In this document: positions 57,951 through 58,681 of the stretch, in pieces
Layout of the letters: each line of letters begins with the position of its first letter
Position numbering within the stretch: position 1 is the stretch's first letter
Assembly (NCBI GenBank): GCA_900197615.1
Contig: FZLR01000003.1
Coordinates: 1 to 64,000, forward strand
Origin: Rhodospirillaceae bacterium Spongia-Bin9
Lineage (GTDB): Bacteria; Pseudomonadota; Alphaproteobacteria; Bin65
DNA: 64,000 bases
Direction of reading: 5' to 3'
The notes under the pieces: model-generated
What the model saw: the letters and a program-made list of their open reading frames with translations, nothing else
Database searches by the model: none
What the model was told of the DNA's origin: nothing
Translations under genes and position numbers: made by a program

Positions 57951-58574
57951 TCACCAATTCGCGGGTTTCCGGATATTCGTACCGGGAATCGGGTCCGGCA
58001 ATTGCGAATGTCGCAAGCCGTTGGTCCGGATGCGCCGCGCGAAGTCGGCATAGGCCAGGAGTTGGCGCGACGGTCCCCTGTTCCCCGGCGTGACCAAACC
58101 GATTCGTTTCCCGCGGTGCAGCTTCACGAGGCGCATGCCCTCCGCCAAATCGCTGTCGTTGCTTACCACGACCGCACAATCGTAAAGGTCCAGCCATCCG
58201 TCATTCAGGAGATGGGCCGCGAGGTTCACGTCCGAGCCCTTTTCTTCTGTCCTGACCACCTCGGCGGAGCGCCGATTCCCTGTCGGTCTGGCCAGCGGCA
58301 TGCGTACCGTGTGGCTCAGGAAGTGCCCGAAATACACCTCTACCTCCGGCCGGAGGCGTTGCACGGCACGGAGATAAGCATCCTGACGCTGCGGTTTCGA
58401 CGGGTCGCCGGCCGTTCCCGAGACCCTTGCGGTAAAGTACTTGACGGCGACGATATCGTGCTGCGGCTGTAACAACCTTTCGAATAGCGCGACCGGGTCC
58501 AGCCATCTCCACGGTGTACCCTTGAGGGCACCGTAATAGAGATTGAAACCGTCCACATAGACGAACGTGCGCAT
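57951..58574 (-). CDS. NYN-domain (PIN-like) ribonuclease
   Basis: Predicted metal-dependent RNase of 207 aa, NYN/LabA-like fold. Acidic residues expected at the active site are visible: D8 and N11 in YVDGFNLYYG, D115 in EEKGSDVNLAAHLL, and D140 and D142 in VVSNDSDLAEGMRLV. The C-terminal VTPGNRGPSRQLLAYADFARRI segment is typical. The start ATG at 58574 gives the standard MRTFVYVDGFN opening; a weak ribosome-binding site precedes it. A strongly structured RNA ending in a terminator lies directly upstream on the same strand. NYN proteins act in RNA turnover, defence or toxin-like roles; which applies here is unknown. Confidence 0.82.
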   Translation of the reverse strand: MRTFVYVDGFNLYYGALKGTPWRWLDPVALFERLLQPQHDIVAVKYFTARVSGTAGDPSKPQRQDAYLRAVQRLRPEVEVYFGHFLSHTVRMPLARPTGNRRSAEVVRTEEKGSDVNLAAHLLNDGWLDLYDCAVVVSNDSDLAEGMRLVKLHRGKRIGLVTPGNRGPSRQLLAYADFARRIRTNGLRHSQLPDPIPGTNIRKPANW

Positions 58575-58584
58575 TCCGACCGGC

Positions 58585-58673
58585 CCCAAAAAGCAGGGGC
58601 CTCCGAAGAGGCCCCGCGCCCTGCGGTCGAAACCGCAAGGGGTGTTGCCTGCAACCTACACCTGCTTTTCGGG
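58585..58673 (-). ncRNA. Candidate multi-hairpin RNA upstream of the NYN RNase
   Basis: Read on the minus strand, 58673-58661 (CCCGAAAAGCAGG) can pair with 58597-58585 (CCUGCUUUUUGGG) in a 13-bp stem. Inside lie three consecutive hairpins: 58662-58641 with GUUG/CAAC and GGU/ACC arms, 58640-58619 with CCUUGCGGU and ACCGCAGGG arms around UUCG, and the terminator hairpin 58615-58596. Two positions pair as G-U on the minus strand but would be A-C mismatches on the plus strand, which supports minus-strand transcription. The closing stem and the terminator hairpin compete for 58596-58597. The element ends 11 nt before the NYN start codon. Confidence 0.5.
58588..58615 (-). terminator. Rho-independent terminator just before the NYN gene
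   Basis: Perfect 8-bp stem GGGGCCTC / GAGGCCCC (58615-58596 on the minus strand) with a UUCG loop, followed by TGC and five Us. It sits 14 nt before the NYN start codon, so transcripts entering from upstream should largely end here, and NYN expression would depend on read-through or a downstream start. Confidence 0.75.
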
Positions 58674-58681
58674 AATTTCAA
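58653..58681 (-). promoter_or_regulatory. Possible sigma-70-type promoter for the NYN leader RNA
   Basis: On the minus strand TTGAAA (58681-58676), a 17-nt spacer and TAGGTT (58658-58653) resemble a housekeeping promoter. A transcript from it would start near 58646 and contain only the last two hairpins, not the closing stem, so promoter and long-stem models exclude each other in part. The remaining 312 bases up to 58993 show no coding sequence, tandem repeats or RNA gene that I can support. Confidence 0.3.

What the first reader, a model, noticed from the sequence alone, without database searches (positions are those of the whole stretch)
58585..58673. Multi-hairpin RNA closed by a 13-bp stem, directly upstream of a NYN-domain RNase
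On the minus strand three consecutive hairpins, two with UUCG loops, are enclosed by a long-range stem whose 3' arm is the terminator U-tract. Two pairs are G-U on the minus strand but A-C on the plus strand, supporting the orientation. The element ends 11 nt before the start of a predicted RNase. A structured RNA plus a leaky terminator before an RNase gene recalls type III toxin-antitoxin layout (RNA, terminator, nuclease gene), although tandem RNA repeats are lacking here. It could also be an autoregulatory leader cleaved by the NYN protein. I know of no described RNA family tied to NYN genes.
Basis: partly seen in the sequence, partly recalled or inferred. Interest (0 to 1): 0.7.

Follow-up and report, generated by a model that had tools for sequence, protein, structure and literature searches.

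The report
Small RNA partnered with NYN nuclease
Just in front of a gene for a predicted RNA-cutting enzyme lies a tiny RNA gene that travels with that enzyme family across some 19 bacterial phyla, probably as a toxin (the enzyme) and its RNA antidote, and no catalogue or paper we could search describes the pair.

Summary
The structured RNA is real, but its anatomy was misread. The "13-bp closing stem" is chance: its 5' arm is the spacer of a sigma70-type promoter (TTGAAA-17-TAGGTT). The likely transcript is ~59 nt (58646-58588, minus strand): two hairpins, the second an intrinsic terminator. A covariance model built from it finds the RNA upstream (median 13 nt) of 73 of 78 NYN homologues; four more have it by eye and the last has it downstream, convergent. 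All 19 pairs show changes on both sides across ~19 phyla. Rfam has no match. It is an independent gene, not a leader: in four actinobacterial loci it lies downstream of the NYN gene, pointing the other way. Enterobacterial plasmids carry 4-5 tandem copies of hairpin 1. RNA variants follow protein clades, and a divergent NYN clade has a different conserved RNA. RNA without NYN occurs repeatedly; among close homologues NYN without RNA was not found. The protein is PADLOC candidate defence gene HEC-09. Best explanation: a type III-like RNA-antitoxin/nuclease module on a PIN-like NYN fold. Toxicity, binding and processing are untested. Novelty: new variant of a known kind.

The parts
58676..58681 (-). 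-35 box TTGAAA of the RNA gene's promoter (inferred)
   Evidence: Kept as TTGATA in congeners; 59% of 71 homologous RNAs have a promoter scoring at least 9/12 at this distance against 5.5% of shuffles
58653..58658 (-). -10 box TAGGTT, 17-nt spacer; start site inferred at about 58646
   Evidence: the stricter generic promoter scan did not list it (8/12)
58588..58647 (-). Small RNA gene (covariance-model match; two hairpins plus U-tract)
   Evidence: R1 match, 84.2 bits, E 2.7e-25 (the window is one of the 14 seed rows); 19 covarying pairs across 86-95 distinct sequences
58619..58640 (-). Hairpin 1, CCUUGCGGU-UUCG-ACCGCAGGG; the unit repeated in tandem on enterobacterial plasmids
   Evidence: 9 pairs, all with changes on both sides, 92% of cells paired
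58593..58617 (-). Hairpin 2, terminator stem GC-GGGGCCUC-UUCG-GAGGCCCC-[U]-GC with a conserved bulged base (58595)
   Evidence: 10 pairs, 98-99% of cells paired; terminator scan
58588..58592 (-). U-tract of the intrinsic terminator
57951..58574 (-). NYN-domain nuclease gene, 207 aa from ATG at 58574; PADLOC HEC-09
   Evidence: Pfam NYN 1.7e-7; HEC-09 8.5e-43; model pLDDT 95; nearest solved folds VPA0982 and MARF1 NYN; invariant D8, N11, D115, D140 in 65 homologues

Best explanation
The element is a small independent RNA gene. Its ~59-nt two-hairpin product is the cognate partner of the NYN endoribonuclease encoded next to it, most likely as an RNA antitoxin: the RNA is made in excess from its own promoter and mostly ends at hairpin 2; read-through gives a little NYN mRNA; the RNA binds NYN and blocks it; when the RNA falls (transcription shut-off by a phage, loss of the plasmid) NYN is freed to cut RNA. 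Shown here: the promoter-RNA-terminator-NYN anatomy, covariation, coupling to NYN, coupling of RNA type with protein clade, tandem arrays, NYN fold and invariant active-site residues. Inferred: binding, inhibition, toxicity, trigger.
For: RNA upstream of 73 of 78 NYN homologues by model and four more by eye, convergent downstream in the last; all 19 pairs with double changes, 400 such cells against 105 in shuffles. In 385 Alphaproteobacteria genomes 15 of 16 strong RNA places (E < 1e-7) lie within ~300 nt of NYN. Four actinobacterial loci have the RNA downstream on the opposite strand, so it acts in trans. Tandem arrays of 4-5 hairpin units before NYN on E. coli/Klebsiella Col-type plasmids, number varying. 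RNA type B falls with one protein clade; 0 of 200 label shuffles as clustered. RNA survives where NYN is deleted (G001, G003) or absent, the asymmetry expected of antidote and toxin. Plasmid and prophage carriage, patchy (22 of 385 genomes). HEC-09.
Against: No expression, toxicity, binding or cleavage data. Most loci, the window included, have one RNA unit, not an array. The toxin fold and the RNA fold differ from ToxIN/CptIN. The 78 loci are the homologues closest to the window protein, so 'every NYN has the RNA' is shown only for that part of the family; some distant NYN proteins lack this RNA. In the window the neighbours are metabolic genes, not a defence island. HEC-09 correlated with phage susceptibility, not resistance, in one strain set (PMC12447246). 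The orphan-RNA argument rests on few cases, and two of the gene losses (G001/G003) look recent and related.
Confidence: 0.6

Rival explanations
1. The RNA is a required cofactor or sensor of the NYN nuclease (an RNP effector, as ncRNAs are for DRT or retron systems), not an inhibitor.
For: The same coupling, covariation and clade congruence are expected of any RNP.
Against: A cofactor should be lost with its protein, yet orphan RNAs recur while close NYN homologues without RNA were not seen; tandem arrays are typical of antitoxin dosage.
Confidence: 0.2
2. Cis-acting leader: terminator/attenuator or autoregulatory site cleaved by NYN to control its own mRNA.
For: The RNA ends in a terminator a median of 13 nt before the NYN start.
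Against: Convergent downstream position in four actinobacterial loci; own promoter; orphan copies without NYN.
Confidence: 0.1
3. An unrelated housekeeping small RNA beside NYN by chance, or only a strong terminator.
For: In G001 and G003 the RNA stays while NYN is gone.
Against: Coupling across ~19 phyla in unrelated gene neighbourhoods and 15 of 16 strong places next to NYN in one class cannot be chance; covariation of hairpin 1 is not needed by a terminator.
Confidence: 0.03
4. RNA-guided nuclease: the RNA carries a guide for NYN.
For: Only that an RNA and a nuclease are paired.
Against: No unpaired variable stretch: hairpin 1 usually has a UUCG or GUGC-type loop and the rest is paired.
Confidence: 0.03

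Closest known systems
Type III toxin-antitoxin systems (ToxIN, CptIN, TenpIN)
   Same: RNA gene, intrinsic terminator, then endoribonuclease gene; tandem RNA repeats (in enterobacterial relatives); plasmid carriage; distinct RNA types with distinct protein clades
   Different: Toxin is a PIN-like NYN fold, not the MazF-like ToxN fold; usually one non-repeated two-hairpin RNA; no pseudoknot modelled; RNA can lie downstream and convergent; no Rfam match
AbiF/AbiFr (HEPN nuclease with ncRNA antitoxin; PMC12373285, PMC12737573)
   Same: Short structured ncRNA with own promoter and terminator beside a nuclease gene; motif present in one or two copies; mobile elements
   Different: HEPN versus NYN nuclease; no RNA relationship found
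AvcID (sRNA antitoxin plus deaminase; PMC10511110)
   Same: A small RNA is paired with a protein effector that is not ToxN-like
   Different: Deaminase, not nuclease; unrelated RNA as far as known
PADLOC HEC-09 (candidate defence gene)
   Same: The NYN protein is a full-length member (8.5e-43)
   Different: Recorded as a single protein model; no RNA partner in the records searched

Membership tests
Type III toxin-antitoxin | Antitoxin RNA gene directly upstream of the toxin gene with an intrinsic terminator between | tested here: met
   73 of 78 loci by model, median gap 13 nt; convergent downstream in four actinobacterial loci
Type III toxin-antitoxin | RNA is a tandem array of short repeats | tested here: inconclusive
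   Not in the window; 4-5 units on enterobacterial plasmids; two whole copies in L054 and L149
Type III toxin-antitoxin | Toxin of ToxN/MazF-like fold | tested here: not met
   Model matches NYN folds 2qip and MARF1
Type III toxin-antitoxin | RNA belongs to a catalogued type III antitoxin family | tested here: not met
   No Rfam match even at relaxed E-values
Type III toxin-antitoxin | Pseudoknotted antitoxin RNA | tested here: inconclusive
   Two nested hairpins explain the covariation; pseudoknots were not systematically searched
Type III toxin-antitoxin | Toxin is toxic, cuts RNA and processes the RNA; RNA neutralises it | not testable with these tools
   Needs expression and in vitro assays
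NYN-domain nucleases | NYN fold with conserved acidic active-site residues | tested here: met
   Pfam NYN, fold, invariant D8, N11, D115, D140 and D142 over 90% conserved
PADLOC HEC-09 | Match to profile PDLC04163 over the full length | tested here: met
   8.5e-43, residues 7-212; nine divergent homologues also match
PADLOC HEC-09 | Anti-phage activity | not testable with these tools
   No experimental report found
AbiF/AbiFr | HEPN (Abi_2) nuclease | tested here: not met
   Only NYN found by Pfam

The most novel reading that the evidence does not exclude
A previously undescribed, very widespread class of RNA-antitoxin/nuclease systems built on the NYN (PIN-like) fold, with at least two unrelated cognate RNA architectures, serving as plasmid-addiction and phage-defence modules across some 19 bacterial phyla.
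Probability: 0.45. Interest if true: 0.9.

Novelty: new variant of a known kind. Interest (0 to 1): 0.8.

Why it matters
If right, it adds a third nuclease fold (NYN, beside ToxN-like and HEPN) to RNA-antitoxin systems, explains candidate defence gene HEC-09 as half of a two-component module whose RNA half annotation misses, and suggests why HEC-09 cloned without its RNA could fail or kill. A ~60-nt RNA conserved with covariation across ~19 phyla and absent from Rfam is itself unusual. The small E. coli plasmids make it directly testable in laboratory strains.

Tried and rejected
Closing stem: rejected. Rfam family: none on the window or on ten relatives; the scores are chance (the RNAI hit in L027 is the plasmid's own). 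Repeat element in the genome: rejected, one copy; the second hit (C295, 36 nt) is a partial terminator-like match. Leader or riboswitch: rejected as the general function. Guide RNA: no guide-like stretch. Solved relatives by sequence: none. Weak genome hits of the RNA model (E 1e-6 to 1e-3) were not counted: mostly lone terminator-like matches. Papers on NYN with an RNA antitoxin: none in the open library; subscription papers and preprints were not searchable. An actinobacterial genome sample could not be drawn.

Full report
WHAT WAS CLAIMED AND WHAT IS THERE. The fold exists and is far more stable than shuffles (z = -4.0). But the minus strand reads TTGAAA-17 nt-TAGGTT just before the two strong hairpins, and the congeners G002, G003 and G001 keep TTGATA-17-TAGATT or CAGATT while the stem's 5' arm, which is the spacer, changes freely. 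The two hairpins and U-tract are identical in all four genomes. Across 71 homologous RNAs a promoter scoring at least 9/12 sits at this position in 59% of cases against 5.5% in shuffles, and the region does not pair with the U-tract beyond chance in 74 homologues (mean 5.7 bp, shuffled 6.0; 13 in the window alone). The transcript therefore most likely starts near 58646 and ends at 58588: about 59 nt, two hairpins, the second a terminator.

THE RNA IS A CONSERVED FAMILY TIED TO NYN. A genome-wide protein search gave 80 loci with the closest NYN homologues. Reading the 150 nt upstream of 78 of them showed the same pattern nearly everywhere: C-rich start, hairpin (usually with a UUCG-type loop), GYGC linker, GC-rich hairpin with a bulged base, U-tract, start codon. 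A covariance model built from 14 of these (window included) found it upstream of 73 of 78 at a median of 13 nt. Of the other five, L076, L087, L098 and L111 show it by eye, and L088 has it downstream on the opposite strand (41 bits). All 19 pairs show changes on both sides; 400 double-change cells against 105 in shuffles, 95.6% of cells paired, and every slid control is far lower (a stricter 88-row set agrees, with 18 of 19 pairs). The alignments were fitted to the model, so they lean towards it, but the slid and shuffled controls are not close. Hosts include Pseudomonadota, Thermodesulfobacteriota, Nitrospinota, Nitrospirota, Acidobacteriota, Bacteroidota, Ignavibacteriota, Chloroflexota, Armatimonadota, Planctomycetota, Gemmatimonadota, Spirochaetota, Actinomycetota and others, about 19 phyla in all; many are metagenome bins. 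Rfam 15 has no match.

IT IS A GENE OF ITS OWN. In a Mycobacterium prophage (L030, 55 bits), a Paenarthrobacter plasmid (L022, 48 bits), Streptomyces (L088, 41 bits) and Frondihabitans (L175, 32 bits) the RNA lies just downstream of NYN on the opposite strand. A leader or attenuator cannot work from there. Orphan copies exist: G001 and G003 keep the RNA, while NYN is deleted down to its last 39-46 codons; L036:1162-1221 stands before an integrase-like frame and L041:2187-2246 before an unrelated small frame; G437 (L184) stands before an unrelated small gene; in G551 (L183, near a contig end) no adjacent NYN was seen. In a draw of 385 Alphaproteobacteria genomes, 15 of 16 strong places (E < 1e-7) lie within about 300 nt of NYN; the exception is G003.

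REPEATS AND CLADES. Small enterobacterial plasmids carry the hairpin in tandem, 33-nt spacing, four units in L027, L141, L182 and L174 and five in L142, followed by a terminator and NYN. Two complete RNAs precede NYN in L054 and G207, and two or more lie near NYN in G093. On a tree of 96 NYN proteins RNA type B (GUGC-type loop, CUCAAA linker) forms one group with the array plasmids inside it, and labels are far more clustered than chance (0 of 200 shuffles; support for the deepest forks is weak, and I assigned the labels by eye). A divergent clade (Klebsiella, Pantoea, Halomonas, Marinobacter, Thiothrix, Xanthomonas) has a different conserved RNA, ACUCAACCC..GCAGCGAUUAAGUUC..GGGGUGAAGAAACCGGCC-terminator, also at the NYN start and also without an Rfam match. 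So having a cognate RNA is a trait of the NYN family beyond this one RNA.

THE PROTEIN. Pfam NYN, PADLOC HEC-09 (nine divergent homologues too), confident model (pLDDT 95) with VPA0982 and MARF1 NYN as nearest solved folds, D8, N11, D115 and D140 invariant in 65 homologues. At least 444 plasmid records carry a relative.

MECHANISM. The anatomy matches RNA-antitoxin modules: RNA in excess, terminator, nuclease by read-through. The asymmetry (RNA without NYN, but no close NYN without RNA) fits antidote and toxin better than cofactor and enzyme. Binding, neutralisation, toxicity and trigger are inferred. The rivals are an RNA cofactor (20%), a cis leader (10%), chance or guide (3% each).

KNOWN OR NEW. 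Type III systems share the layout and, in part, the repeats, but have ToxN-like toxins and pseudoknotted RNAs (PMC5086642); the toxin fold was tested and not met, so this is not filed as type III sensu stricto. AbiF/AbiFr is the closest in logic (PMC12373285, PMC12737573). No paper in the open library links NYN or HEC-09 to an RNA; subscription papers and preprints were not available, so prior description elsewhere remains possible.

Noticed in passing
L180:1090-1203, L195, L199, L205:500-606, L206:490-600, L207:490-603 (+); variants in L178, L181, L208: A second, unrelated conserved RNA (core GCAGCGAUUAAGUUC...GGGUGAAGAAACCGGCC-terminator) sits at the start of a divergent NYN clade on gammaproteobacterial plasmids; no Rfam match.
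   Followed up: partly
L193, L194, L196, L197, upstream of NYN: A third NYN group has GACGCCCCCG(A/U)GCUUGCGCUGCGGAGGCGUC hairpins about 100 nt upstream, perhaps a further cognate RNA.
   Followed up: no
L027:577-689, L142:225-370, L141:954-1066: Tandem array of 33-nt hairpin units with 4 or 5 copies before NYN on small Col-type plasmids of E. coli and Klebsiella.
   Followed up: partly
L036:1162-1221, L041:2187-2246, L184:1501-1560 (-), L183:317-376 (-): Orphan copies of the RNA without an adjacent NYN gene; one precedes an integrase-like frame, another a small gene encoding MWEDPIVEEVRKVREEHAARFDYDLDAIYKDLK.
   Followed up: partly
L062 (NYN from 3001): The RNA is intact (64 bits) but the NYN frame stops after 93 residues (pseudogene or assembly error).
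   Followed up: no
L181:1898-2413: A ProQ/FinO-family RNA-binding protein gene lies directly beside the NYN gene on a Thiothrix plasmid.
   Followed up: no
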